DNA from: Coprinopsis marcescibilis
Taxonomy: Eukaryota; Basidiomycota; Agaricomycetes; Agaricales; Psathyrellaceae
Length of the DNA stretch: 64,000 nucleotides
Assembly (NCBI GenBank): GCA_004369085.1
Contig: ML210182.1
Coordinates: forward strand, 124,001 to 188,000
Direction of reading: 5' to 3'
Shown here: positions 7,455 through 58,237 of the stretch, piece after piece
How positions within the stretch are numbered: position 1 is the stretch's first letter
Layout: each line of letters opens with the position of its first letter
The notes under the pieces: generated by a model
Told to the model about the DNA's origin: nothing
The model's database searches: none
Seen by the model: only the letters and a program-made list of their open reading frames with translations
Translations under genes and position numbers: made by a program

Positions 7455-9287
7455 GAGAGGGACGAACTACGAGAGGTGAGAATCGGTGCGAGCGGGAGGG
7501 CGAGCCACATGGCCAGAACGTAAGGTAGTGGAAGTGGGAGGGAAGTAAACAGTAGTCAAAGGGGAAGAAGAGTTGAGAGGAGGAGACAAGGGCCGAGCAT
7601 GAGCAGAGGCATGAGGAGGAGAAACAGATAACGGCGGACGTTGAGTATCAACAGAAACATCGTCAGTAGAAGAAATGATATCAGAGAATACGAACGAAGA
7701 TGGGAGCGATGCGATTTGTTTGATGGTAAGCGTGTGAGGTTTTGGAGCGCGGGGATGCCGGCGATGGAAGTGCTCGATGAGTTCGTTGGCGGTTGTTGGT
7801 AGATTGTTGAGCTGGACCCAAGAATCTTCCGAGTTGGGTTGATCCTTCCAGCGAGTGAGGTACTCATAGCGATGCCCAATCTTGCGGCAATCGAGTAGCT
7901 GGGCTACGGCGACAGCTGAGTCTTCGGCAAGTTGGAACTTGTCAGGAGTGGCATGGGTGTGAAACTCCGTAGGATCGGAGTATGGCTTGAGCAGGGAAGT
8001 ATGGAATACAGAATGGAGTCTCAAGAGGCAAGGGGGAAGCGTAAGTTGGTAAGAATCGTTGCCGATGAGGCGAACGACGGGGTAGGGGCCGAGGCGACGA
8101 TGATCGAGCTTGAGGGACGGGCGTGTGGTCCGAATGTTGCAGCGAAGGAGCCAAACCAATTGGCCTGGCTCGTACTGGGGCAAGGGCAAAACCTTCTTGT
8201 CATAGATCTTGCGTTGTCGTTCTTGAGCAAACTCAAGTTCAGCTTTGAGTTCGGCATGTATGAGGTCTAGTCGGGAGGAAAGGTCGTTGGCTGCCAGTAC
8301 CGTGGATATATCTGCGAGTTGAGGGGCGAAGGTGGGGTGATGCCCGAGATTGGCGAAGAAGGGGGTTTGTTTGGTGGACGCATTTTCGGAACTGTTGAAT
8401 ACAAACTCGGCCAAGGGTAAATAGTCTACCCAATCATCTTGCTGGTAGGAGCAGTAGGCGCGAATGTAAGTCTCGAGAGTTTGGTTGGTGCGTTCCGTGA
8501 GACCGTCAGTGCGGGGGTGATAAGCGGTCGAATGGCGGAGCTTGATGTCGAGGCGGGTGGTGAGAGATCTCCAGAAATTGGATATGAAGACGGACCCGCA
8601 ATCCGAGATGATGGAGTCTGGGAGTCCGTGGTAACGGAAGATGCGGTCAATGAAGAGCCAGGCAAGGTCTGCTGAAGTGAGGGTTTCGTTGCACAGGATG
8701 AAGTGGGCAGCACGAGTGAGACGATCACAAACGACCCAGATGGAGTCATAACCATGGGACTCGGGGAGTTTGACAATAAAATCCATGGAGATGGACTTCC
8801 AGGGACGGTTGGGGATGTCGAGCGGTTTGAGCAAACCATAGGGTTTGTGTCGGGGAATCTTGATATGGTGGCAAACATCGCAGGCTGCAACATATCGACG
8901 GACGTATGTGTGAATGCCGGGCCAAGAGTAGCCCAGCAGGAGTTTCTTGAGCGTCAGGGTGCGGCCAGGGTGTCCGCTAACGACGGCATCATGGAACTGT
9001 TTGAGGATTTCGTGGCGGAGTGGGTCAGGTACGAAAACACGGCCTTTGTGGAACACAATGTTGTCTTGCACAGTGAAATCTTCATTGCTTTTGAGCAGGG
9101 CTTCACGCCATTCGGTGTCGGTGTTGAATGCGTCTTGAAATCGTATGAGGAGTTCTGAGTTGTCGATGACGGATGATGTGAGTGCTGAAACTTTGATGGG
9201 TGCTGGGATGGCAGAGTCGGATTGGGGGTTGATGCGTTGGGTGTGATAGGGAGTTAATATGGCTTTGAATTGCTGGAGGAGGACATC

Positions 9288-9303
9288 ATCTCCCTTTTTA
9301 GGG
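9288..9303 (-). other. Internal copy of the polypurine tract (candidate central PPT)
   Basis: The 16-nt plus-strand string ATCTCCCTTTTTAGGG is identical to 7439-7454. It lies in pol between RNase H and integrase, encoding FPKKGD. Position in mid-pol resembles the central PPT of lentiviruses and Ty1; function here is inference. Confidence 0.45.
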
Positions 9304-11639
9304 AAGTAGTCCGGTCGTCAAGAGGGAGCGTCGGCCACATTCTGGGAACCCGGGGCCCAGGTGAGCTGAAAATCGAATTCGGTAAGAAACATAGCCCAGT
9401 GGGCTTGACGGCGGTTGAGAACCTTTGAAGACATGAAGTATTCAAGGTTTTTGTGGTCAGTGATAACGGAAATGGGCTGAGCAGTACCCATGAGCCAGGC
9501 ACGCATGTCGCGAAACGACTCGATGACACCTAGGAGTTCCTTGTCGTGTATGTCGTAGTTGATTTCTGCGGGTGAGAACTTGCGCGAGAAGTAAGCTACG
9601 GAACGGAGTGTCCCGTCATCATCAGGTTGCTGGAGAACACCGGACATGGCAAAGTCGGAAGCATCGGTGAACAGAGTGGCTGGCTTGGAAGGGTCATAGT
9701 GGCGGAGGATGGGGTAGGACGAGAAAGTAGTCTTGAATTTCTCGAAGGCTTGGTTTGCGTCATGGGACCAGATGAATGGAGTGTCTTTACAAGTTAGATG
9801 GTAGAGGGGAATGGCGATTTCTGCATAGTGGTCAACAAAACGGCGGTAAAAATTGCAGAAGCCCAAGAAGACCTGGATATCATGGGAAGAGCGGGGAGTT
9901 GGCCAGTCAGTGATGGTTGCCAACTTTTTGGGGTTCATCATAATGCCTTCAGCACCGACGAGGTAGCCAAGGTACTCGACCTGTGATTTGTCGAACTCGC
10001 ATTTCTTGGGGTTGGCGAAGAGGCGAGCATTTTTGAGGCGTTCGAGTACCAGTTTGACGTGGTTGTCGTGTTCTTCCTGATTCTTGGAGAAAATCAATAT
10101 GTCATCTAGATAGACAACACAGAAGATCCCAAGGTAGTCGCGGAGGGTGTCTTGGATGAAGGATTGGAAGGTGGCAGGTGCATTGGTTAGTCCGAATGGC
10201 ATGACGAGGTACTCATACAAACCGCGAGGAGTGCAGAAAGCAGTTTTCCACTCGTCGCCAGTGCGGATACGGATAAGGTTGAATGCGTTCTTGAGGTCGA
10301 TGACGGTAAATAAGTTGCAGCCTTGGGTAGAGTCAAGGAGGTCATTGATGTGGGGAATAGGGTATCGATTCTTCTTGGTGATGGAATTGAGGCCGCGATA
10401 ATCAACGCAAAGTCGAAGTTCACCCATTTTCTTTCGAATGAACAGTACAGGGGATGCAGCGGATGACGTGGAGCACCTAATGAAGCCTTTCTTGAGATTT
10501 TTGTCCAAGTATTCGCTTAGTTCCTTTTGTTCGTCTTGTGTGAGCCTGTAAAGGGGTCCAAATGGGGGGGATTTGCCATCTTCGAGCTCGATGGTACAGT
10601 TGTAGGGGCGGTGAGGGGGTAAATCATCAACGGCAGTGGGTGAAAAGACGGTTGACGCCCAAGGTTCGTATTTCGCTGGCAGCGTGGAAATAACAGAGGG
10701 AAGGGGATTGGAGGAATCTGGTTCCGCAATGTCGTTGGCAAGCAGGGATGGGGACAAGGATGTGATGTAAATTGGCGAGGTGTTGGAATGTATGTTGATC
10801 ATGCCAACTTGGTGGTTCTTCGAGTATTTGGTGAATTGTTTGATGTTGCAGATTGAAATCTTGGTGGGAAGTTTTGGCAGGGGGTTCTCAAGGGAAGAGC
10901 GACCGAAGCCAGCCCATTTGGCAAGAAAACTGAGGTAGGAGTTTTTTGGTTCGTCTGAGGAAGGTGAAACTGGAGAGGCGTCTGTAGAGGAGGGACCTGG
11001 TGGAGCAGGGGTTGGGTGAAGACCAAGGCCTATCCCAACTGTAGTAACAGCACAGGTGCTAATGGCATGGTTAGTGGTGGCTCCATCAAGACCGAAGCCT
11101 CTGGGCCGAATGCAAACAGGGTTGGATCGGGTGAGGTTGCAGCATGAGAGCGTGTCGGATGGGTCTGACCAATCGATAGTGGGGTTGTGTAGTCGCAGCC
11201 AGTCTAATCCAAGGATGACTGGGAAGGCGATGGAAACCACAGCCAATGGGAGGATTTCAGCATGACGATCAATGGTGATTCCGGCGATAACATCTTGAGT
11301 GACCAATCCGGAGGCGATAGGCCGGTTGTCGACTGCAAGGACAGGGACTGGGATGTCCTTTCGACGACGAGGAAGCGAGTGGCGAGTTGAAAACTGTTCG
11401 GAGATGCAGGATTGAGAAGCGCCGCAATCGATGAGCGCGTAAGTCTTGATGGGTTTTCGACCTGGGAAAGAGAGAGTGATGGATACCAGGAAGTGGTCGG
11501 GGAAAAGCTGGGTAGAAGAAGTGACGGCTAAGATATAATGGGGAGTGGGAATGTCGGAAGTCAGGTACCACTTCCCATTGGAGAAGCGGGTGAATGAGGG
11601 CACCGTAGTGGATGCTGGGGTCTGAACATCGGAGTCCGG

Positions 11640-11681
11640 TAGCCCTGAGACCAGGGTGGAGCTACTGGTTAAGCTTTTCCC
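11640..11681 (-). promoter_or_regulatory. -1 ribosomal frameshift signal between gag and pol
   Basis: In gag phase the minus strand reads TCG GGA AAA GCT TAA, so the heptamer G GGA AAA (11675-11681) lies in the X XXY YYZ arrangement one codon before the gag stop (11669-11671). About ten nt downstream is a potential hairpin at 11640-11664 (TAGC ... CCCTG-GTCT-CAGGG ... CTA). Slippage by -1 enters the pol frame (LGKSLTSSS). Confidence 0.75.
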
Positions 11682-12807
11682 GAGTGGCCAGGTTTGGTCT
11701 TCTTGTTGGGACAAGCAGAGGCGAAGTGATTAGCTTGGCTGCAGTACAGGCAGAGCTTGTTGGTACGTCGACGTTCCTTCTCTTCATTGGTGAGCGGTCC
11801 TCGATGCATGGCATCAATCTCCATCGGGACGACCGAGTTGCTGGCAGGAGGAGGATTGGGGGCAGCTGAGGTCAAAGAGGGATTGGCATAGGGTACGAAG
11901 GGACAGCGGTAATTGTTAGCAGAGGGGGCTGTGGTGTTGCGAGCCGTGTTGAGTGCAAGGTTATGTACTTCATTATCGATGTTGACACAGACCTTGGCAT
12001 ACTCTTCGAAATCTCTGGTGAAATAGCGACCTTTGCAGTTGCATAGCATGGTCTTGACCGAATCCTTGAGTCGATCGTAGTATTCTTGAATCTTGGTTTG
12101 ATTGGTCCAGTCGAGTTCAGCAAGAATTTCGATAAACTGAGCGGTGAAGGCAGCACAGGATCCGGTTTGCTTGAGTTTGCGGATTTTGCACATGGCCGAA
12201 GCATACTGGTCAGAGTCCTCGAAACGTTTCTTGAATGCGTTGATGAAGTCGTCATAGTCATTGAGGAGGAAGGATTTGGTAGCGTCAAGCTCGATGGAAT
12301 GATACCAGGAGGCTGGGGTACCGTTGCCTAGGTAGAAACTGAAGTACACGATTTTGTTGTAGTCCGTAGTGAGCGAACGGCGCTGGAGGTAGATGGTGTT
12401 GTTGATCTCCCGGAGGAAGATGTCAATCTGGTCAGAGCGACCACTGAAGACACGTGGTTCTCGGTGTTTGGGCGTGGGACCAGTACTGGCAGGTTTGTCG
12501 GCCAGTTTATTGACAAGGTCGGTGAGGGACTGACGCTGGTTGAAGCTTTCGATGTTGGAGTTATCGTAAGCGTGCCCAAGGGCAGCAACGGTGCACCAAA
12601 GAGTCATGCGCTCATGATCGTGGTCTGTGGGAAGTTGTGCTTGCTGCTAAGGGGCATCCGAGCCGGATTGAGCAGGCTGGAAAGAGTCTTGATGTTGAGC
12701 AGCTTGGGCTTGTTCGTAGGCTGCTTGCTGAGCTGCATAGTCGGCCTGTTGCTGTTGCTGTTGCTGAGCAGCAGCAAGTGCTGTGAGAGTATCGGTGTCG
12801 ATATTCA
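11669..12807 (-). pseudogene. gag: gypsy gag with one in-frame TAG
   Basis: The frame opens at ATG 12805-12807 with MNIDTDTLTALAAAQ and a Gln/Ala-rich stretch, meets a single TAG at 12644-12646, and stays open to TAA at 11669-11671. Downstream of the TAG an ATG at 12607 heads a 312-residue frame holding the capsid-like domain. The nucleocapsid zinc knuckle CLYCSQANHFASAC (CX2CX4HX4C) is near the end. The stop follows CCT and precedes CAG, so CAG-to-TAG is the simplest origin. It is unclear whether the internal ATG still gives functional Gag. Confidence 0.85.
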
Positions 12808-13085: not shown

Positions 13086-15366
13086 TCATCATCATCGTCG
13101 TCATCGTCGCCATCATCTTCAATGCCATCAACATCGATAAACTCACCCTCTTCATCATTGTGGGAAACCGTGGTGACTTTGGGCCTCGGAATTCTTGGTA
13201 GAGCACAAAATTCAGCCTGTTTGCACTTTGGTTTTGGGTTCTGGACCTCCCAGTCCTTCACTTTTTGACCAGCAGCCTTTGCTGCCGCCTTCTCCCTGTT
13301 CCAGCTCTCCACAGCTTCCACCCACTTCTGGCGCCTTGCCTCATTCTCAGCATCCCGCTCCTCCACCTTCAGTTTCCACTCCTCAAGCTTTCTCCCATGA
13401 TCCATTTTGACAGCCCTCCGATCCGCTTTTTCTTTTGCAGTGTCTTCTTGGGCCTTTTCCACGGCGGCTGTACGCTCGATAATTTCAGGCATTGTCATGA
13501 GGCGGCCATGACCATCATTGGTGATTTTGAGGTTCGTTTTCTTCTTCTCCTTTTCCTCCTTGGCATTGAGTTGCTGACAGACCCGGCGTGAGTACAGGGT
13601 TAGAAGAACAAGCATAGCCTGTTGCCGAAGTGCAGTGCCCTTCCAGTAGTTGATGAGAGCCTGCTTCTCGGTAAGCATCACATCCACCTCTGCTTTCGTG
13701 TATCGACGGTCAGCAACTGCCTGTAACTTCTTTACTGGGGAAATTGCGATGGTCGGCATTTCGGGAATCAGGGATGCTGACTTTATAGGGGATGACGAGC
13801 AAAGATAGTTGGTGGATGACTGTTGAAGAAGGTCAACAGCAGCACAGATTGGGAAGGATGATTGGGCGTGTCTTTCAGGTGTGTTGTCTTTGTTTGCATC
13901 AGCTATGTTGGCGGGCATTACTAATGCTAGTTTCCGTTGCTCTAGCTTGTCAATCATGCAATCAGCAACAATCCGAATGGGAGTGGGAGGGTGAATTGGT
14001 GCAGCAACCTGGTTGGAGGTGTTTTGGCTTGGGGCCATTATTTCTGGTGTAATCACGTTGCGGTCGACAGGGATTATTCCTGTTTTTCGAAACACCTCCT
14101 TGATTAGTTCGGGTGTGAGTACATTGAGATGAGTTCATCCATACACCCCAAGGAATGTTTCCTTTGAGACATGAACTGCTTTCTCGCGATATAGAGCATC
14201 CCGTTGCTTGCCGTACTCGTGCTTCATTGGGCTGAAAACAACGACATCGAGACCTTGGTACACATGAGTTGCATGAGGAGGGTAGCAGAGAACCTTGATG
14301 TTGTGCTGCCGGCAGTGGTCAAGGAATGCGAATGTGAGGTGGGAGTTATGGCCATCAAGGTAGAGTGTGTGAGTACGGCTGTTTGCAACATCGTGTGTCT
14401 GCATTTCAAAATTCTTGGCATACTCGAGGCCAAGTACCTTGTCAGTCCAGCCTTTATTTGAGTAAGCAAGGCTGTAAAGCAATATGAGTCTGAAATTGTC
14501 TAAGATAAGTGTAGTGTTACTTACAAAACCTTTGCAGGGTCTTCTTGAATCCAACGTGACTGGAAACTCTTCCCTGAGTACAGTACCAGTGGATGCAAAG
14601 CCACACCATTTCCTCCAATGGTAATGAGAACAGTGATATTCTCGCATGTTCCACCTTGCTGCTTATACTGCAGCTTTTTCCCAGCAGGGCCAATGACATA
14701 CTCCAATCCTTCACTGCTGTTTGGCTGAAAACCCGTTTCGTCTATGGCGAAGGTGCATTCTGGTGCGATTGGCTTGCCATTATCACCTCGGAGTTGGACC
14801 TCTTCAACAAGATCAAACCACTGTCTATTGGTGTTCTCGTTAACTGCAGATGACCGAACGGTATCAAGAGAGCGAGAACGATAGAGGCGCAGTGTTTCTG
14901 AGTTTCGTCCCACAAAACGGTGTGCCCAACAATCGCCAATGCCACCAGGTGGGAACTTCTTTCCCAATCGAGCCCGAAGGATGGCATCAACCTGCTCCTT
15001 CAGTCGAGCATAGGAAAATGGTTGCCCCCACAAGGCAAATAGGATAACCGTGTTGATAACCTCCTGCTCCTCCTCCTTGGTAAGCCAGTGCTTTGTCGTT
15101 GCATTAAAATCTTGAATGGTAGTGCTGCCATTTACAAGATTCCGTAAGGTGTTGTGGTTTAATGCAATGTCCAAATTTGGTTTCTTGACCTCGGCGCGGT
15201 ACTCCTGTGTGACAATCTTGCAAATTGTTCGAAGCCCTTTCTTCTTGTTGGGGGTAGGCATCTCCTGCTCCTGTTCATAAAGAGTTACTGCCCGGGCATA
15301 GAGTTTCTCCTTGGTTTCGCGTGAGAGCTGCAAAGTCTTGGTCTTGGTCAATGGCTTTCGAGGCAT
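13086..15366 (-). pseudogene. pogo/Fot-like DDE transposase, one in-frame stop, gypsy inserted at last codon
   Basis: ATG at 15366 gives MPRKPLTKTKTLQL with a psq-like and CENP-B-type helix-turn-helix region, then a DDE_1 catalytic core. The catalytic acids appear in FAIDETGFQ, LYLDGHNSH and YQGLDVVVF, the last in the PPHATH context typical of pogo/Tigger/Fot proteins. A 53-nt intron (14472-14524) joins AKVF to LAYSNKGW. The frame then meets one TGA at 14132-14134 (after FLGVYG) and continues HLNVLTPELIKEVFRKTG to an acidic tail of repeated Asp. The gypsy LTR begins at the final Asp/stop codon, so in the present DNA the frame runs on into LTR sequence until 12827. Loss of activity probably comes from the internal TGA rather than from the insertion. 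Confidence 0.85.
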
Positions 15367-23208: not shown

Positions 23209-24605
23209 TTACACCGGGGAACCTTTGGTATCGTTGACGAGCGTCTGCCCCTGGTCAGACATGTATGATTGAGAGTGTTCAGTGCGTATTTTTGTCGGTG
23301 TCATGGTATCGAGGTGGTGCTGCTCGGTGACTGACTGGCTGATGGTGGCGATAATGGGCATGGTCGGTCGTCGGCCGTCCTCACTGTCGCCAGCCATCCA
23401 GGATGGGAAGACAGAGTTGGTGGGGTATTGGGTTCTGGCGGCATCGTTCTTGGCGACATGGGTCCGGATGGCGAGGAGGAGGAAGACGATACCTATGGAG
23501 AAAGGATTGGGTTATCAAAGAAAGACCGATGGATGAAGCGCAACTAACCCATGGTGGGAACAATCATGTGTTGGATGACGACCAGACCGGGGTGGGTCAT
23601 ATAGAACAAGATGATCATGATGAACACCTCAAACGTGTAAACCGCGGCGGATTCAACGACGATACGGGCAATGGTGAAAAGATCTACAGTCGAGGCCAGG
23701 ACCAATCCAGAAGCACGCGTCTCTCTGTGCTGCTTGTAGATTTTGTAAGCGATAAGACCGGTGGTGATCAAGTTCTGGGCCAAGTTGACGGGGAAGATGA
23801 CCTTCATGAAGGGCTCCATGGTCGAGTAGGGAATGCTGGTAGGATTTTGGAACCAGTACCAGTTGACAATAGTTGTTGCTGGGGAGATGGTCGGTAAGTC
23901 TATAACTTCAAAAACACAAAAAGTGCACATACCCACGCTAACTGCCAACAGGAAGGCTGGAAAGGCGATAACGTAGTAGTTCCTTCGCCAAATCAAGAAG
24001 CAACGGTAGATCTGAACCCAATATCAGAGGCGAAGGCGAAGAAATAAAAGCAGGAAGACACGCACAACCAAAACGTCGCCAATCCATGTCAACAAGCCTC
24101 CGATAACGGCGTGTATAAAATTGTCCCATTGGCTGAAATCCTGGAAGTAAACCACGGGAACACCGACTGGTGAATTGACATAAAGTGCGTAAGCCCGGAT
24201 CATCTTGTAGACAACGCTGACTTCGAGGGAGGATAGCAGGTAAGTTAAACCCTTCAAGAAGTCGGACGAGAGGACCCTTACTATTATGTATGACAATCAG
24301 GATAAACATCATGATGATTCCACTAAGGAAAACTCTGGAAGCGAAATGATCCAAAGACCGCTTTCGTGTCATTATCCGAATGGCAACAATAAACATGGCA
24401 AGGTAGATGCCAAAGAGAACGGTCTGGAACGTTCAATGTGGTCAGAGAATCACACGTCGCGAATGACTTCAGTGCTCACCTCCGCCCAGAAACCTGCCAA
24501 ATAATGCGTTTGATACCTCGCATCGAGAATGAAAGGTACAGATTCGCCATTTGAGTTATCTCCCAATACCACTCCTCCACCTGCATCTGTGCCTGTGGTC
24601 GCCAT
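23209..24605 (-). CDS. Agaricomycete-type seven-transmembrane protein
   Basis: Six exons (24605-24480, 24423-24282, 24220-24066, 24011-23933, 23878-23549, 23492-23209) join to 371 residues from ATG 24605. About seven hydrophobic helices are visible, including TVLFGIYLAMFIVAIRI, GIIMMFILIVIH, AVIGGLLTWIGDVLV and VFIMIILFYM. The block ARIVVESAAVYT in the sixth segment is typical of a large 7TM family in mushroom-forming fungi whose ligands are unknown. The C-terminal tail is hydrophilic and Thr/Ser-rich. It is not an STE3 pheromone receptor: the STE3 N-terminal helices and characteristic loops are missing. A GGGAA repeat (24627-24648, plus strand) lies in its 5' leader. Confidence 0.85.
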
Positions 24606-27099
24606 AGTGCTCTTAAGGGAGTAAGGGAAGGGAAGGGAAGGGAAGGAGCGTCGGGGGGAGGACGAGCCTACGGAGATGGAAGAAGTGATGGGGGGCAGAA
24701 CGCACTGGGAGAGCAAATTGAAATCGATTTCCTTAAAACCAAACGGCGGGTGCAAATTTGGTTCCTCATACCCCCAAAACCGTCATCCGCATGGCATCAC
24801 AGGGCATCACCTGGATAGACCCTGAGTGCTTAATGATGAGTTCCTGGAGCGAAAGATCCATTTTCCTTTCGTACCTCATTTCCACGCCCTTAAATTTCCT
24901 ATATGTAGAACTTAACTGCACTCTCACGTTGCAGCCACATAATATTCCGAATTCAAATTGTCAAAGGGCGGCGTCCACTGCGCCCCCTAGAAACCTCACA
25001 CCATCACTGTGTACTCGGTCACCTAACGGGGTCGTGTTACATAGGCTGAGTCCTGACTGAGTTCTCTTTCCTGTGGCTGATTTCGAAATCCGGCCGTCGT
25101 TGGCGGAAGAAGAAGATACCGGCGATCGAGTGGCAAATGAGATTGGCCGGCTGAGCGCTCGGTCCATTGCGCGTCTGCATGGGGGTGGTTTACGAGCTTA
25201 CCGGTGTTCACAACAAAAGGTACAGAAGGTAAGCTCTTTTAAGGCAAAGATGGTCTGAAATGTCTCATTCGCTTTTATTCCTCGCCCTAGCCAGTAGAAA
25301 GTGTCCCGAATGAACCAGCCAAGGTGGTTTCAAGGTGGATAGGGTCCCGACCGAAGCCTTGGCTGATGGCGGATCACAAACCAAGTGTGGCATTGGAGCA
25401 TCACGATAGCGAAAGCGAATTTTCTGAAGAGGCCCGGGAAGCTACATAGGGGCTTGTGTCCAGTTGCATTAGACTTTATTAGGCTGACCTCTGGCATTCG
25501 ATCAGAATATTCTATTGGAATTCACAGCACATAGTAAGTAGTGTGTAGTCGTCTCCTTGTTGCTAACACATCTTGTCATTTCAGTTTTGCGCAATGAAAT
25601 GCAGCCTCTCATCCATAGGCTATTAGGAGAAAACAATTTGGAAGCTGGTTCTCATTTATGTCTGGTATGCACCCCTTCGAAAAACAGGCGCCCTATTTAA
25701 GGTAGGCGGCTGAATCAGAGTGTTCTCGCGCTTTTGTTTAGCGTATTTCCAACAATTAATTATCATATGGTCACAGTTACGCTCAAACGCGCCCCTGAAC
25801 CTCCCTGAACCCCCCTTGGTTGATCGAGAATTGATTGTCCACAAGGAGGTATACTGTTTTTCCCGCTCAAAACACAGTGACTGCCGTCACGGGATATCGT
25901 ACTACTCACTATCGTGAATGGTACATTCCGAGCTGACTAGCGTGCATTAACTTGCACTTTGAAAGCACGCTGCTCGAAGATATGACTTAGCTTTACGAAA
26001 TCGATAAGCCTGGGTGCACTAACGATTGGCTATGATGTATTCCAGCGGCCTAACTTTCAACGGATTCAGAAGCCTTGGCGGTCTTTTTCCCGCACCCAAG
26101 AGCGCCCGAGGCCATCAATACTTGTCAATCTCGGGCATGGGAGGACATGAGAAAGTATTGATTAATTACTGGCACGCGAGGGTACTGCATGCACACATGG
26201 AGGCCACACCGCCAATGTGAATTGGCGGGTTACTTGCCAGTATTATGTTGCACATGCAACGCCCAGTAACCAAGGATATTAAAATTCGATATTGAGCAAA
26301 GAGGCACTTTCGCATTCTGATGGACCTTGAAATCAGGTGAAAACCCAATACATTCAGGATGGCGTTACTTGCGCGTCACACAAGTTACAACTATCAGCTG
26401 TAATACTCTCGGGGATAAGAGATTGCCTACTCTACGCAGTGCCGTTCCCGACTGTAGCTTTCAAGTCCTTCTACAGTCGGAGTCATCTTGACAGCCATAA
26501 ATAACAATCTAATGACTGGCTTTGGGCAATCCGCGCCCCCTCTCCGAAGCCACATACCGAACGGCCGAAGCACAGGTGGGCAACTTCACTTCTAATGCTT
26601 GATCCTGTGGGACGGACTCTGCTTTCTACTACTTCGCTACAACCTTCATTTGGACGCTTCACAAAATACGTACTGTCTTCAAATTTGATTTAATCTTGGC
26701 TTCCCAACCTCATCTTGAGGTTCGTCATTTTTTGGTACCTTCCATAAGTAGACATAGCTGCACTATTGTTTGGATCTGAACAGAGAAGCCCGAGAGAGAT
26801 GTATTATCGTAGAAAACAAAAGAGCAAGCCGTAACCCTTAATCTCTCTCCAGACTAAAATGGCCCGTGTCATCACCTTCTTCGTGAGTTCTGCGGTGGGC
26901 CCGGCAGTATATGTGAGCCAGTCAACGATTTATCTTTTAGCAGGTTTCATATTCTGACCATGTTTATGGTTATTTTTAGATACAATTGATGTGGCGTACC
27001 ACGAGGACCAGATCCTACACGAATGTCATTTTTTATTGTTGCAACTTCTCTTAGGCAGATTCCTGTTCAAATTGATACTCTCGGGCAGCTTCGAGGCGC
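24606..27099. other. 2.5-kb region without a supported gene
   Basis: Short open frames (for example 25073-25258) lack family motifs or consistent splicing. An ATG at 26858 (MARVITFF) is followed by GTGAGT and could be an upstream exon, but no continuation was found. No tRNA or clear repeat was seen. Confidence 0.45.
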
Positions 27100-27106
27100 T
27101 ATAAAG
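27100..27106 (+). promoter_or_regulatory. TATA box of the pheromone precursor gene
   Basis: TATAAAG lies about 100 bp upstream of ATG 27201, in a fitting place for a short intronless transcript. Confidence 0.5.
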
Positions 27107-27200: not shown

Positions 27201-27320
27201 ATGGACTCCTTCTTCACTCTCTTTACCCACAGTGGCTCTGATTCTACCCTGGCAGATATCCCTGCAGACAACGAGACCGGAGGCGGCAGCGGCAGTACCT
27301 CTTACTGCACGATTGCATAA
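27201..27320 (+). CDS. Lipopeptide mating-pheromone-type precursor (CAAX peptide)
   Basis: A 39-residue intronless frame starts MDSFFTLFTH and ends SGSTSYCTIA-stop. The start MDSF/MDxF followed by LF is the usual opening of basidiomycete pheromone precursors. The last four residues CTIA form a CAAX box for farnesylation, AAX removal and carboxymethylation. Just inside, ADNET gives the charged pair expected at the N-terminal cleavage site, leaving a Gly/Ser-rich mature peptide of about 11-13 residues ending in Cys. Such peptides bind STE3-type receptors in mating or as non-mating paralogues. No STE3 gene lies in this window; the 7TM gene 2.6 kb upstream is of another family. The frame is short, so the call rests on the combined motifs. 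Confidence 0.75.
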   Translation: MDSFFTLFTHSGSDSTLADIPADNETGGGSGSTSYCTIA

Positions 27321-28114: not shown

Positions 28115-28711
28115 TTACAATCCACACACCGAAGCGGCCACAGCCCTCGCAACCGCGTTAACGCGACCGAGTTCCACCGCCCTTCCACCCGTCAGGGTGT
28201 TCAACGCAGCCGGTGCGACATTGAAAGAATTCACCGCCACATCCACAGCCAACACGTTAACCCTTCTCGTCGTACCATTGCTGGTGAAAGAAAGCTCCCA
28301 GCATGAGCCACACGCGGGGCTGTTCCATCCAGTCACCGCAAACGCGCCTCCGATGTTCGGGAAGCTGGGCAAAGAGCCAAAGGTCGTGAACCCCTTGGAT
28401 AAAAGACCGTTGGGACCGTCAGAGCAGGAGACAGTACGCAGAGATTGGCCTGCGTTCCCGTATGCTGGGTCATAGCTGACGGTGGTGTTGACAATGACTG
28501 GAGAAGGGGTAGGCTGAGGAACGATGGTTGACGAAGGGGGTGGAGGACTAGGGGTGGCGGACACAGTCGACGAAGGGGGTAGACTAGGGGTGGCAGACAC
28601 GCTCGTCGTTGGTACAGGCCCAACAGTCGTTCGGGTGATGGTAATGGTTATAACCTGCCCGAGAGCAAGGAGAGGGAGGGCCGAAAGCGAAAGAAGAGAG
28701 AGGTACTTCAT
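28115..28711 (-). CDS. Cerato-platanin family protein with Ser/Pro/Thr linker
   Basis: The intronless frame of 198 residues begins with a signal peptide (MKYLSLLSLSALPLLALGQ). A 50-residue Pro/Ser/Thr-rich linker follows, probably O-glycosylated, and then a complete cerato-platanin domain: VSYDPAYGNAGQSL, VSCSDGPNGL, GFTTFGSLPSFPNIGG, WNSPACGSCWEL, and the terminal VAASVCGL. The four conserved cysteines are present. Cerato-platanins are small secreted double-psi-beta-barrel, expansin-like proteins that bind chitin oligomers and self-assemble at surfaces; no catalytic role is assigned. A TATA box lies 64 bp upstream. The gene is the parent or sibling of the copy at 41576-42319. Confidence 0.95.
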   Translation of the reverse strand: MKYLSLLSLSALPLLALGQVITITITRTTVGPVPTTSVSATPSLPPSSTVSATPSPPPPSSTIVPQPTPSPVIVNTTVSYDPAYGNAGQSLRTVSCSDGPNGLLSKGFTTFGSLPSFPNIGGAFAVTGWNSPACGSCWELSFTSNGTTRRVNVLAVDVAVNSFNVAPAALNTLTGGRAVELGRVNAVARAVAASVCGL

Positions 28712-41575: not shown

Positions 41576-42319
41576 TTACAACCCACACACCGAGGCGGCC
41601 ACCGCCCTTGCAACCGCATTAACGCGTCCAAGTTCCACCGCCCTTCCACCCGTCAAGGTGTTCAACGCAGCCGGTGCGACGTTGAAAGAATTCACTGCCA
41701 CATCCACAGCCAACACATTAACCCTTCTCGTCGTACCATTGTTGGTGAATGAGAGCTCCCAGCATGAGCCACACGCGGGGCTGTTCCATCCAGTTACCGC
41801 AAACGCGCCTCCGATGTTCGGGAAGCTGGGCAAGGAGCCAAATGTCGTGAATCCTTTGGCTAAAAGGCCGTTGGAACCGTCAGAGCAGGAGACAGAGCGC
41901 AGAGACTGGCCTGCGTTCCCGTATAGTGGGTCATAGCTAACGGTCGTGTTGACGATGACTGGAGATGGGGTAGGCTGAGGAACTATGGTCGACGGAGGGG
42001 ATGAAGACTCGCTCGTTGGCCAAGGGATGGGAGGCTCGCTCGTCGGCCAAGGGATGGAAGCCTCGCTTGTCGACGGGATGGGAGGCTCGCTCGTCGGCGG
42101 GATTGGAGGCTCGCTCGTCGGCCAAGGGGGTGGAGTACCACTAGTAATGGGAGGCTCGCTCGTCGGCCAAGGGAGTGAAGAAGTAGCGGGGTCAGGCGTT
42201 GAAGTTGGCATAGGCCCAACAACCGTTCGGGTGACGGTGACGGTGACGGTGACGGTAACCACTTGCCCAAGAGAAAGGAGAGGGAGGACCGAAAGCATAA
42301 GCAGCAAGAGGTATTTCAT
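41576..42319 (-). CDS. Cerato-platanin family protein with expanded PTSEPPIP repeat linker
   Basis: 247 residues in one exon from ATG 42319. Signal peptide MKYLLLLMLSVLPLLSLGQ, a Val/Thr stretch, then a linker of roughly eight units related to PTSEPPIPW, and the cerato-platanin domain (SYDPLYGNAGQSLRSVSCSD, KGFTTFGSLPSFPNIGG, WNSPACGSCWEL, end VAASVCGL). The domain is almost identical to that at 28115-28711; the linker is about 50 residues longer through 30-nt repeats. Repeat number is likely variable between strains. The secreted product probably displays its domain on a stalk. TATA box at 42392-42398. Confidence 0.95.
   Translation of the reverse strand: MKYLLLLMLSVLPLLSLGQVVTVTVTVTVTRTVVGPMPTSTPDPATSSLPWPTSEPPITSGTPPPWPTSEPPIPPTSEPPIPSTSEASIPWPTSEPPIPWPTSESSSPPSTIVPQPTPSPVIVNTTVSYDPLYGNAGQSLRSVSCSDGSNGLLAKGFTTFGSLPSFPNIGGAFAVTGWNSPACGSCWELSFTNNGTTRRVNVLAVDVAVNSFNVAPAALNTLTGGRAVELGRVNAVARAVAASVCGL
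42010..42180 (-). repeat. 30-nt imperfect tandem repeat in cerato-platanin linker
   Basis: Units around GGCTCGCTCGTCGGCCAAGG (plus strand) recur with small changes; each encodes a Pro/Ser/Glu-rich decapeptide. Confidence 0.8.
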
Positions 42320-53552: not shown

Positions 53553-56500
53553 ATGACGATAACGACGAATGATACAGCGGCAAGTGGGAATGTGGTAGCC
53601 AATCCTGGCCAGGTTGCACGAAAGTACCAGGAGGAAATATTCAGACAGGCTCAGAAAGGTTCTTTCTTATATTCGCTTTAATTTGGCCTGTGTGCGAGCT
53701 GAATACTACAGCCAATGTCATTGCATACCTCAGAACCGGTCTTGGGAAGACCTTAATCAGTGTCTTGTTGATACGATGGATGTGCACCCAAGAGAAAGCC
53801 AGAGACAAGGCCATCTTCTTCTTGGTCCCGAAAGTGAGCCTTGTAGAGCAGCAGGCAAACTACATCCATAAGGAAACTGGTCTGCGGACGTGTCGGTTAC
53901 ATGGGGCACTATCGCTTGATTTTGGAAACAGACGAGCGTGGAACAAAAGATTCCAGGAGCATGACGTTTTCGTTATCACCCGTGAGGTCTTTTGGGCTCT
54001 TATTATCGCATGCTCTGACAAATCTACAGCCCAGCTTTTTATGGAGATGATTACTCATTCTGTCTGGAGCATCGACAAGTGTTCGTTGATTATCTTCGAT
54101 GAATGTCACCATGCACGCAAAAATCACCCATATAATAACATCATGCGGGAGTACTTTGAAGTGCAGCCGACGAAAGCCAGACCCAAGATATTTGGGATGA
54201 CAGCCTCTCCATATTGGAACCAGAAGAACCCTGCCCTCTCGCTGTCGACACTAGAAACAAATTTGGACTCGAAAATTATAGGCGTACACGAGCATGTTGA
54301 AGAACTGCAGAATCACTACGCCAGACTTAACGAGGTTGGCTGACTGAATGTTCTATGCGTCATGTCTTCGATACTAAGCTCTCATTCAGGTTATCCAGGA
54401 CTACCCATACCCCCCAGAGCGATATGAATTTCCGGAACCGACCCTCTTCCAATGCCTCAAGATATTCCAGGCGAACGATCCCTCCTTGTTTGATCATATG
54501 GACGTAACATGGAGCAAAGTCGAAATGCGGTATTATATGACGCTGAACAACATCGGGCCATACGGTGCCTCTTTATACCTCTTCACAGAAATGCAACACT
54601 ACGTCAACGAATTACTTTCCAAGGCGCAACGAATTCTCTCCACGGATACTCAACACAATGCCATGTCCATTGACGTCGATGCGACATCTACCCAGCCATT
54701 GAAATTGCCCCCAATCGCGATCTTCGATATTTTGGAAGTACTTGACGACTTCGAACCTTACTACTACTCTCTGGCCTCGCCTGATACACTCCCTGTTCCA
54801 GTCCCACTTGAATGGTGCACACCAAAGCTGCAGATATTGGTGCATACTGTCAAGGATCACTTAAAACAATCCGTACAGACCATCATATTCGTGGAGCAAA
54901 GGCAAATCGCTGCATGTCTTGCCAAGGTCCTCGAGGCGATTCCTGAACTCCAGGGTCTAGTAAGGTGTGGCTACCTCGTCGGTCTAGGGACGAGCGGCGC
55001 CGGGATCTCTAAAAGGATCGAGTCTTCGAAAGGCGATGTCATCAAGCTCTTCAGAGATAAAGAAATCAATGTCCGTGAGTGCCTTTATATGCTTATACAA
55101 GGACATGGAACTAAGTCCTTGCAGTGATTGCAACCTCGGTCGCGGAAGAAGGACTAGACTTCCCTGTGGGTCTTGCTTCATTGTCCCTTCTTTTGCTTGA
55201 ATCTCATTGCTGTTTTACAAGGCCTGCGAGCTGGTGATCAGATTCGACCCGCTACAGCACTTGGTAGGCTACGTCCAATCCCGAGGCCGCGCGAGAAGCG
55301 AGGTCTCGAAGTACATTATCATGATCCAACAAGACAACATCGCGCAACTGGAGCGGTATCGGTCTCTGCAGCGCGGAGAAACGGAGCTCAGCCAAACGTA
55401 TAATACGCGGCAGCTTATTCTTGAAGAGGAAGGCGAAGAACTGGAGATTGATCCACTGGGCCAAGATATACACCCGATCGACCTTGCTGAACGCGAGCGT
55501 TATGTTGTACCATCGACAGGGGCAATTCTCACATACGACAACGCCATGAGCCTCATCAATCATCTCTGCTCCATCATACCACGCGATGCATTTACACTCC
55601 CGCCCAAGCCAGTGTACTCCGGCCAGTTCCAGTCGAAGCTTCGCTTGCCCGCCGGCCTACCGCTAAGAGGTCGGGACATGGTCTATCTCGGTTATCCAAA
55701 GAGGACGAAGAAAGAAGCAAAGCGATCGGCAGCGTTCCAAGCAGTAAAGCGTCTTATGCGTCTGAATGTCTTCGACGAGTACTTGCTGCCGACTTCCAAG
55801 GATGTCGAGGATATAGAGGAGGGCGAACAACGACAAGCTGAGCTGCCATCCGAAACCCTGCAAGTGCAAGTCAAAGACCCTTGGTATATGGGCACGAAAC
55901 TCTGGCTACACCCTCTGCGCATAAATTCGGATGTTACAACCGCCATCGTTACCGGAACCGACTTACCGACCATCGACATGAAGATTAACGGGTTCGACGT
56001 ATCATTGGAACCAGGTATCCCACTCGATCTTTGCCCCGAGGACGAACTAGAGAAGATACGCCTCATGAACGACTTCACAAATTTTGGCGTCTGGTTGCGC
56101 AACACATCCAAACCTTTCGAGGGAAAGATGTCCTTCTTCCTTGTACCGCTAACGGACGATGCAGAAATTGCCATCGACTTTGATTTCATGCACTACGCGG
56201 TCGAGAATAAGAGGGGAACGCGCGACTGGAGCGGGGTTGACAAGGAAGACTATGGTCAGGTCTTGGTGTTCAACCGGAACCAATTTGGCCGAACATACAG
56301 GCTCGAATGCATCAGAAACGATCTTTCGATGCAATCCACTCCAGAACCCGGGACGAAAGAAAGCACGGAAGGCACGTACTACGAATTCTTTTCGAAGAGG
56401 TGGACACGGAAAAAGAGATTTGCCTTCATACCGAATGATGGTCCTTTGCTGGAGGCAACTATCTTGTTTCGCGCTGACGCAGGAACCTATAACGTCAGAA

Positions 56501-58237
56501 CTGGCGAAGCAGGCGCCATCACACACGGTCCTGCTGAACACCACCTGATCCCTCTCGGTTGCTGTCAATACCTTCATTTCCCCAAACATCTTTGCAATGC
56601 GTTCGGAATCCTTCCTGCTCTGTGTCATGCGGTTACAGGCCTGTACCGTGCCCAAATGGCACAGACGAGCTTACACCTTCCGGCAATCGCCGGCGCCCTT
56701 TTGACAGAAGCCCTCACGATCCCAGCAGCACAATTCTGCTTCAACAACCAACGGTTGGAAACGCTTGGTGACGCGGTTTTGAAACTGTTGACCACTGTAC
56801 ACCTGCTCAACGCATATCCCACCCGGCACGAAGGCCAGCTGTCTGATCTGCGCAAGCAATACGTATCTAACAATTTCTTACTTCGCCGGGCATTGGATGT
56901 CCAGTTGGAACGATATATCTCCTGCGAAGTCTCCTCTGTCAACAAATGGCGATATGTCCTGCCCGAATCAAAAGACCTTATATCGGATCAGCAGAATCGC
57001 CGATGTACAACGGCAGTTTACCCAAGGCGAAGTTTGCAGGATTGTATGGAAGCTTTGCTTGGTGCAAGCTTTTTGGAGGGCGGGACGGTCATGGCTCTCC
57101 AAGCAGGTACTGCGCTGGGAGTACTTTTTGGGGGTCCTCTTCCTTGGAACATCCGCTATCGGCGAAGCAACACATATGTTCCTGTTACACCACTATTCGA
57201 CACCTTGCAAGACCGATTAGGGTACGAGTTCCGGTCCAACGACCTCCTTGTGGAAGCGGTAACGCATCCGTCCTTTGCAGGGTCCTCCAATGGGCCCTCC
57301 TACCAGCGGCTAGAATTCCTCGGGGATGGTAAGAGCTTTTATCTTTCGGATGTGAAATGATGTTTCAGACTGACTGGAATTCTCTATTCATAGCAATCCT
57401 TGACCTGGTCGTTATGCACTACCTGTTCAACAAATTCCCTGACGCTACCTCGCACCAACTCTCCTTCCTACGTGCCAAGGTCATCTGTTCGCCCGCGCTC
57501 GCCTATCTCTCCGCAAAGAAGCTGAGTTTACACAAGATCCTGCTGGTGAACAATGTCGAGCTCTACCGGGCAATAGACATGTATGTCCCTGTCCTGGACG
57601 CGATCTCTGACGAAGAAATTGTTTCGCATGGTTGGAAATACGATCCACCCAAAGCAATCAGTGATGTCTTTGAAAGTCTCATCGGTGCTGTCTTCGTGGA
57701 TTCCGGGTACGACTACGAGAGGGTGTCGGTGCTCGTCGAGGATGTTATGGGCGGCGTGCTCGAACATTTAGCATTGTCGTTGGCAAAAGACCCTATTTCG
57801 GAGTTTACAGAATGGATGGCGAAGGAAGGGTGCAAACAGAAAGTTGTGTTCAAGTACGTTGTTCCGCTCTCTTGGGTATGATTTCACAGAAACTTATCAA
57901 ACTCACCTTTCTCAGAAAACACGTCAAACCTCAGCGAGACCTCACCGGCTTCGGACTCATTGTTCAAGTTCACGACATCGTTGTTGTTGGCCCAATCATT
58001 GCATCGACTCAGAACGTTGCCAAATTTATTGCATCCCAGCGTGCATTTTCTCTAGTATCTGATCCCGAAAGCGAATTCTCGCTCGACAAGATCTGCAACT
58101 GTGGTAAACAAATGGATGTCGACGGAATCAAAGAAACCCCGTCGCAGGTTACTGACAGCACGGTGATAGAGGTTAGCGAACCCGAGGAGAAGATTCAGCA
58201 AAATGGTGGCGTGTTGGAGGCGATTATTGCCATGTGA
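53553..58237 (+). CDS. Dicer-like endoribonuclease
   Basis: Seven exons (53553-53658, 53712-54334, 54390-55074, 55125-55165, 55222-57328, 57394-57853, 57916-58237) give 1,447 residues. The N-terminal helicase has RTGLGKTLIS (motif I), IIFDECHHAR (DECH box), FGMTASPYW (III), TSVAEEGLDFP (V) and QSRGRAR (VI). A Dicer dimerisation domain follows (KEAKRSAAFQAVKRL). RNase IIIa has QRLETLGDAVLKL and CMEALLGASFLEGG; RNase IIIb has YQRLEFLGDAILDL and DVFESLIGAVFVDSG, so all catalytic acids are present in both. No clear PAZ domain was recognised in the middle, as is common in fungi. It should cut double-stranded RNA into small RNAs for Argonaute-mediated silencing. The last 100 residues are acidic and variable. 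Confidence 0.95.

What the first reader, a model, noticed from the sequence alone, without database searches (positions are those of the whole stretch)
27201..27320. Orphan lipopeptide pheromone precursor far from any STE3 receptor
The 39-codon frame combines the MDxF start, an ADNE processing-type site, a Gly/Ser-rich mature region and a terminal CTIA CAAX box, all in the sizes known for basidiomycete pheromones. A TATA box sits about 100 bp upstream. No pheromone receptor of the STE3 type is in the 64 kb. It may be a non-mating pheromone-like gene or mark a fragmented B locus. Such genes are routinely missed by gene finders.
Basis: partly seen in the sequence, partly recalled or inferred. 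Interest (0 to 1): 0.8.

Follow-up and report, generated by a model that had tools for sequence, protein, structure and literature searches.

The report
One of 26 mushroom lipopeptide-signal genes
The short gene looks real and would make the precursor of a small fat-tagged signal peptide, but it belongs to a known kind of scattered, non-mating pheromone-like genes in an inky-cap mushroom, and does not look like a lone or broken piece of the mating-type locus.

Summary
The 39-codon frame at 27201-27320 is as described and is very unlikely to be chance: 200 dinucleotide shuffles of the window gave no MDxF...CaaX frame of this size. The genome matches Coprinopsis marcescibilis. The gene is one of at least 26 intact precursors on 14 contigs (12 one-unit, 14 two-unit). 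None was found on the three contigs holding the six STE3-type receptor loci, where distinct precursors with ER sites lie. Its predicted mature peptide (TGGGSGSTSYC) recurs exactly in two two-unit precursors, with 5 and 6 of 11 codons changed silently. 25 of 26 members have a TATA box 64-129 bp before the ATG, and their upstream DNA is enriched in ACAATW. C. cinerea has a 39-residue relative, 51% identical. [quoted passage not shown] So the peptide reading holds; 'orphan' and 'fragmented B locus' do not. Most likely it is a farnesylated secreted lipopeptide sensed by a STE3-type receptor outside mate choice; maturation, receptor and role are inferred. Less expected: two-unit precursors with an internal CaaX box are common, 86 of 167 listed relatives.

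The parts
27201..27320 (+). 39-codon precursor gene of a non-mating-type pheromone-like lipopeptide, with its TAA stop
   Evidence: Translation; 25 other intact family members; 20 of 39 residues identical to C. cinerea P0067; PF08015 Pheromone E=0.0014, 20.1 bits, just under the cut-off of 22
27201..27275 (+). Pro-region M1-E25: MDSF start and the P-A-D-N-E site after which N-terminal cleavage is inferred
   Evidence: M1, D2, F4, the P and the final E are invariant in A2 (17 sequences); the rest of the pro-region varies; cleavage itself not shown
27276..27308 (+). Predicted mature peptide TGGGSGSTSYC (T26-C36), Cys predicted to be farnesylated and carboxymethylated
   Evidence: Identical to unit 1 of two two-unit precursors on C56, with 5 and 6 of 11 codons differing silently
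27306..27317 (+). C-terminal CaaX box CTIA; TIA predicted to be removed
   Evidence: Cys invariant, final Ala invariant or nearly so; matches to prenyltransferase, ICMT and Ste24-N-terminal profiles in the genome
27100..27106 (+). TATA box (TATAAAG) at -101
   Evidence: 25 of 26 family members have TATA[AT][AG] starting at -130 to -60, against 83 of 2261 ATGs of the window
26982..26987 (+). ACAATT, candidate family promoter element (-219)
   Evidence: ACAATW upstream of the 12 one-unit genes: 2.08 per 400 bp against a mean of 0.54 (sd 0.22) in 200 shuffles; highest of 120 letter permutations
27034..27039 (-). ACAATA on the minus strand (+ strand reads TATTGT), second candidate element (-167)

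Best explanation
The gene encodes the precursor of a small farnesylated signal peptide. Inferred steps, from established a-factor-type maturation: farnesylation of Cys36, removal of TIA, carboxymethylation, N-terminal cleavage after the PADNE site to give about TGGGSGSTSYC-farnesyl-OMe, and export without a signal peptide. It is one locus of a family of at least 26 genes that makes a pool of related, partly identical peptides from divergent precursors, with shared promoter features. The peptides most likely act on one or more STE3-type receptors outside mate choice (hyphal self-sensing, growth or fruiting). Shown here: the frame, its family, the constraint on the peptide and the shared promoter features. 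Inferred: expression, maturation, secretion, receptor, role.
For: Frame not expected by chance. 26 intact family members on 14 contigs. The pattern for Y-C-a-a-A-stop occurs 27 times in the genome against 2 for the reversed pattern; 23 of the 27 are intact family members. Window mature peptide identical in two other genes with only silent codon changes; TGGSRGSTSYC is encoded 10 times in 6 genes. pN below pS in 65 of 66 one-unit pairs and 91 of 91 two-unit pairs. TATA in 25 of 26. ACAATW enrichment, with at least one site in 23 of 26 against 54 of 159 window stretches. C. cinerea relatives, P0067 closest in form. The A. [quoted passage not shown] Profiles of maturation enzymes match in the genome. 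Receptor-like genes in Schizophyllum commune with self-sensing phenotypes are called orphans (PMC8161036, passages).
Against: No transcript, peptide or receptor data here. The PF08015 score is just under its curated cut-off. The window gene lacks the 3'-UTR intron-like pattern seen in 14 of 26 members. The 26 genes are not independent (close copies on C47, C56, C176). Silent sites are near saturation between one-unit genes and distances are uncorrected, so pN/pS is a rough guide. Three of 26 members have no ACAATW site and one has no TATA box. The ICMT profile also matches 5 of 14 control genomes, so it is weak evidence for Ste14. No test links any receptor to the family.
Confidence: 0.75

Rival explanations
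1. It is a mating pheromone gene left over from, or split off, the B mating-type locus, and still signals mating type.
For: Similar architecture (MDxF, CaaX) and the same Pfam family; three family members on C31, C71 and C418 carry an ER-type site.
Against: Precursors with ER sites lie near STE3 genes on C210 and C24; no family member found is on C24, C40 or C210; the same peptide is encoded at several loci, which does not suit mate discrimination; C. cinerea relatives lie on contigs of at least six different lengths; promoters differ from those of STE3 and B-type genes.
Confidence: 0.05
2. The peptide is made and prenylated but does not act on a STE3-type receptor: it is a membrane-anchored or secreted lipopeptide with another task (antagonism of other microbes, surface activity, or signalling through another receptor class).
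For: No STE3 match lies on any of the 14 contigs of the family; the peptide is Gly/Ser-rich and many near-identical units would suit a dose-dependent product; a gene 2.6 kb away encodes a multi-pass membrane protein of a family with 37 matches.
Against: Size, CaaX and family are those of receptor ligands; of the contigs with a match to the membrane-protein family only C37 carries a pheromone-family gene.
Confidence: 0.15
3. Decaying or unexpressed duplicate, or a chance frame.
For: One family copy (C56:23760) has lost its MDSF start region, so copies do decay; the window gene does not appear among the listed database proteins.
Against: Intact start, site, CaaX, TATA and two ACAATW sites; silent-only codon changes in the mature peptide; no such frame in 200 shuffles.
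Confidence: 0.05

Closest known systems
[quoted passage not shown] cinerea consensus GGGSGNGAYC, L. bicolor GGGSGNNAYC; A. bisporus peptides)
   Same: MDS/AF start, acidic processing site, G-rich mature peptide, YC-a-a-A end, dispersed away from the mating locus (PMC8305134 section 3.5 and passages; P0067, P0121, P0156)
   Different: Mature end STSYC instead of NGAYC or NNAYC; at least 26 genes, 14 of them two-unit, whereas the A. bisporus paper reports four genes of 44-54 residues
Mating-type-like pheromone precursors of the same genome (C210:313-510, C210:4046-4204, C24:3827-4072)
   Same: CaaX end, PF08015 over the cut-off; MDxF start in the two on C210
   Different: ER processing site, longer pro-region, unrelated mature peptides, near STE3; no TATA[AT][AG] at -130 to -60 and one ACAATW site among the three
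Rhodotorucine A precursors and hpp1 of Trichoderma reesei
   Same: Several CaaX-like units in one precursor, as in the two-unit paralogs (PMC3068285, passages)
   Different: The window gene has one unit; the agaric two-unit precursors have R or K in the four residues after the internal box in only 44 of 84

Membership tests
Fungal CaaX pheromone precursors (PF08015, Pheromone) | Match to the Pfam profile over the curated cut-off | tested here: inconclusive
   E=0.0014, 20.1 bits against a cut-off of 22; relative P0067 scores 27.2 and relative P0069 14.5
Fungal CaaX pheromone precursors (PF08015, Pheromone) | Short precursor with a C-terminal CaaX box | tested here: met
   39 residues ending CTIA
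Fungal CaaX pheromone precursors (PF08015, Pheromone) | Farnesylated, carboxymethylated, secreted mature peptide | not testable with these tools
   Only profile matches to the enzyme families were found in the genome
[quoted passage not shown]
   GGGSGSTSYC; 20 of 39 residues identical to C. cinerea P0067; A3 alignment
[quoted passage not shown]
   No STE3 match on C37, 220 kb; physical contigs only, no genetic map, so linkage beyond the contig is not excluded
[quoted passage not shown]
   Needs crosses or gene removal
B-locus mating pheromone | Acidic-basic (ER/EH type) processing pair | tested here: not met
   D-N-E in the window gene; PMC8305134 also lists EE and DE as possible sites for pheromone precursors
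B-locus mating pheromone | Adjacent STE3 receptor gene | tested here: not met
   Receptor matches only on C24, C40, C210

The most novel reading that the evidence does not exclude
Mushrooms run a second, separately regulated lipopeptide signalling system beside mating: a large gene family with its own promoter code (TATA plus ACAATW, possibly read by an HMG-box factor) makes a few shared peptides from one- and two-unit precursors whose internal CaaX box must be freed by an endoprotease before prenylation, and these are the missing ligands of the orphan non-mating STE3 receptors.
Probability: 0.3. Interest if true: 0.7.

Novelty: new member of a known kind. Interest (0 to 1): 0.42.

Why it matters
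It shows that genes of this size can be found and sorted from mating pheromones by family, promoter and peptide reuse. The expanded family, with one peptide encoded at several loci, gives concrete candidate ligands for non-mating STE3-like receptors, which are called orphans in S. commune (PMC8161036, passages). The two-unit precursors with an internal CaaX box raise a clear processing question.

Tried and rejected
Fragmented B locus: rejected, because receptors and ER-type precursors are on C24 and C210 and no family member found is there. Neighbouring membrane protein at 23.2-24.6 kb as a dedicated receptor: the two frames scanned have no Pfam hit over a cut-off (best E=0.021), and of the contigs of its 37 genome matches only C37 carries a pheromone-family gene, so its place is probably coincidence. 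3'-UTR intron, as reported for A. bisporus: a crude pattern fits 14 of 26 members against 26 of 490 control stretches, but not the window gene. ACAAAG and ACAAAGGG, words like the pheromone response element of U. maydis, are not enriched. C116:6974 (PF08015 at E=0.3): no pheromone-like frame in the 601 bases fetched, dropped. C1, C10 and C78 pattern hits have no precursor frame in front and were dropped. The receptor comparison by joined exon pieces is not used: the C210:20 kb piece was read on the wrong strand. Stop-to-stop frames printed for L015 and L016 are also wrong-strand and were replaced. The TATA offsets printed for control genes are miscounted; for the C210 genes one search is used. 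A looser count of two-unit relatives (90 of 167, 88 with the second box at the end) was replaced by a stricter one (86 and 84), whose rule misses P0004 and P0125, two-unit by eye. No paper describing two-unit precursors in Agaricomycetes showed up in search listings 18, 22, 27, 28, 32, 33, 51 and 52; most listed papers were not opened (one search had 88, 20 listed), and the library lacks most subscription journals, so this is not proof of absence.

Full report
What is there. The frame at 27201-27320 (+) reads MDSFFTLFTHSGSDSTLADIPADNETGGGSGSTSYCTIA and then TAA. TATAAAG lies at 27100, 101 bp upstream, and no ATG lies between it and the start. In the window it is the only frame of 25-75 codons with an MDxF start and a terminal C-aliphatic-aliphatic-X; 200 dinucleotide shuffles gave none.

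Where it is. The window is part of contig C37 of an unnamed 36.3-Mb assembly. Three database hits are named Coprinopsis marcescibilis. P0002 and P0003 are letter for letter frames on C176 and C56, P0004 shares its last 57 residues with a frame on C141, and the contig lengths given for them (65712, 166767, 82241) equal those of C176, C56 and C141. The organism is therefore C. marcescibilis (Agaricales, Psathyrellaceae). The window peptide itself is not among the listed hits, so it was probably not annotated.

Receptors. PF02076 (STE3) gives 18 exon matches in six places: three on C24, one on C40, two on C210; none on C37. Near the receptors on C210 and C24 are three precursors with ER processing sites and unrelated mature ends (52, 65 and up to 81 residues), all over the PF08015 cut-off. 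These look like the mating-type pheromones of this genome; that is an inference from position and form.

The family. Searching the genome with the peptide, with a DNA pattern for Y-C-a-a-A-stop (27 hits, 2 for the reversed pattern) and with two relatives gave 26 intact precursors on 14 contigs: 12 with one unit, 14 with two. Of the 27 pattern hits 23 are among the 26, three have no precursor frame (C1, C10, C78) and one belongs to a decayed copy at C56:23760. The count is a lower bound, since the genome searches score only their best candidates. None of the 26 is on C24, C40 or C210. Three of them (C31, C71, C418) have an ER-type site and a Pro/Trp-containing end, so the family is not uniform.

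Constraint. The predicted mature peptide of the window gene, TGGGSGSTSYC, is also unit 1 of two two-unit precursors on C56; 5 and 6 of the 11 codons differ, silently. TGGSRGSTSYC is encoded 10 times in six genes. pN is below pS in 65 of 66 one-unit pairs and 91 of 91 two-unit pairs. Between one-unit genes pN/pS is 0.51 from Pro21 to the end and 0.68 before it, with silent sites near saturation and no correction for multiple hits. Close copies are not independent events.

Promoter. 25 of 26 members have TATA[AT][AG] at -130 to -60, against 83 of 2261 ATGs of the window. The word ACAATW is the densest of 120 letter permutations upstream of both groups: 2.08 (one-unit) and 2.71 (two-unit) per 400 bp, against shuffle means of 0.54 and 0.48 and shuffle maxima of 1.17 and 1.14 in 200 shuffles each. 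23 of 26 have at least one site, against 54 of 159 window stretches. Nine upstream stretches of STE3 and mating-type-like genes together hold two sites (receptor starts are taken from profile matches and may be off by an exon). The window gene has two sites, at 26982 and 27034. That an HMG-box factor reads them is a guess from recall.

Relatives elsewhere. A search with an alignment that held 7 two-unit rows of 17 gave 113 proteins at E up to 1. One with an alignment without two-unit rows gave 133 at E up to 0.01, of which 120 were listed. They include 11 entries named C. cinerea okayama7 and one of another C. cinerea strain; P0067 is the same length as the window peptide, 20 of 39 residues identical, and shares PADNETGGGSG. 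Entries from Agaricus bisporus ('pheromone-like peptide'), Serpula lacrymans and Laccaria belong to the same set. Of 167 relatives held from both listings, 86 have two units under a strict rule, 84 of them with the second box at the very end; in the listing alone it is 64 of 120. Within one precursor the two 11-residue units agree at 9.6 positions on average, between precursors at 5.6 (84 precursors). The rule needs both boxes, so it cannot show how often the internal box is lost; P0081 lacks the internal Cys. Many hits come from metagenome sources without a name, so the spread over species is not measured.

What is known. The A. bisporus paper (PMC8305134; [quoted passage not shown] cinerea consensus GGGSGNGAYC and L. 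bicolor consensus GGGSGNNAYC, and at least three of its four genes are expressed. PMC4101180 (passages) reports four precursors resembling such peptides in Pycnoporus cinnabarinus. The window gene is a new member of that kind. Precursors with several CaaX-like units are known for rhodotorucine A and T. reesei hpp1 (PMC3068285, passages).

How it most likely works. A farnesylated secreted lipopeptide made by the general a-factor route. Profiles of prenyltransferases (three places), ICMT (five places; this profile also matches 5 of 14 control genomes) and the Ste24-type N-terminal domain (one place; 1 of 14 controls) match in the genome; none was tested further. The best candidate targets are STE3-type receptors not tied to a pheromone gene, such as that on C40: in the 10 kb examined there, one frame ends in a formal CaaX box but lacks the other pheromone features. 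In S. commune, receptor-like genes affect self-sensing and are called orphans (PMC8161036, passages). Expression, receptor, cleavage and role are inferred.

Verdict. Observation confirmed; peptide reading supported; orphan and B-fragment readings not. Ordinary in kind, moderately interesting through the size of the family, the reuse of one peptide by several loci and the two-unit precursors.

Noticed in passing
C47, C56, C132, C141, C176, C216 of the same genome (L017-L024): Fourteen two-unit precursors with an internal C-a-a-A/S box followed by QRP (QHP in one); the one on C141 carries two different peptides (TGGSRGSTSYC and ENRAKGAVSYC).
   Followed up: partly
window 23240-24600 (-): Probably multi-exon multi-pass membrane protein (by eye), no Pfam hit over a cut-off in the two frames scanned, about 2.6 kb upstream of the peptide gene; 37 matches in the genome including itself.
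   Followed up: partly
window 7467-12607 (-): Ty3/Gypsy-type element: reverse transcriptase, RNase H and protease by Pfam at 9318-11714; the flanking frames look integrase- and gag-like by eye only.
   Followed up: no
window 14135-14647 (-): DDE_1 transposase-like frame; the neighbouring frame 14521-15366 had no Pfam hit.
   Followed up: no
window 28115-28711 (-) and 41576-42319 (-): Two cerato-platanin genes with domains that look nearly identical by eye and Ser/Pro-rich linkers of different length.
   Followed up: no
window 53690-57360 (+): Dicer-like gene in several frames: helicase, dimerisation and RNase III domains.
   Followed up: no
L017, C56:23760-23822 (-): Decayed family copy that keeps the YCVIA end but has lost the MDSF start region.
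   Followed up: no
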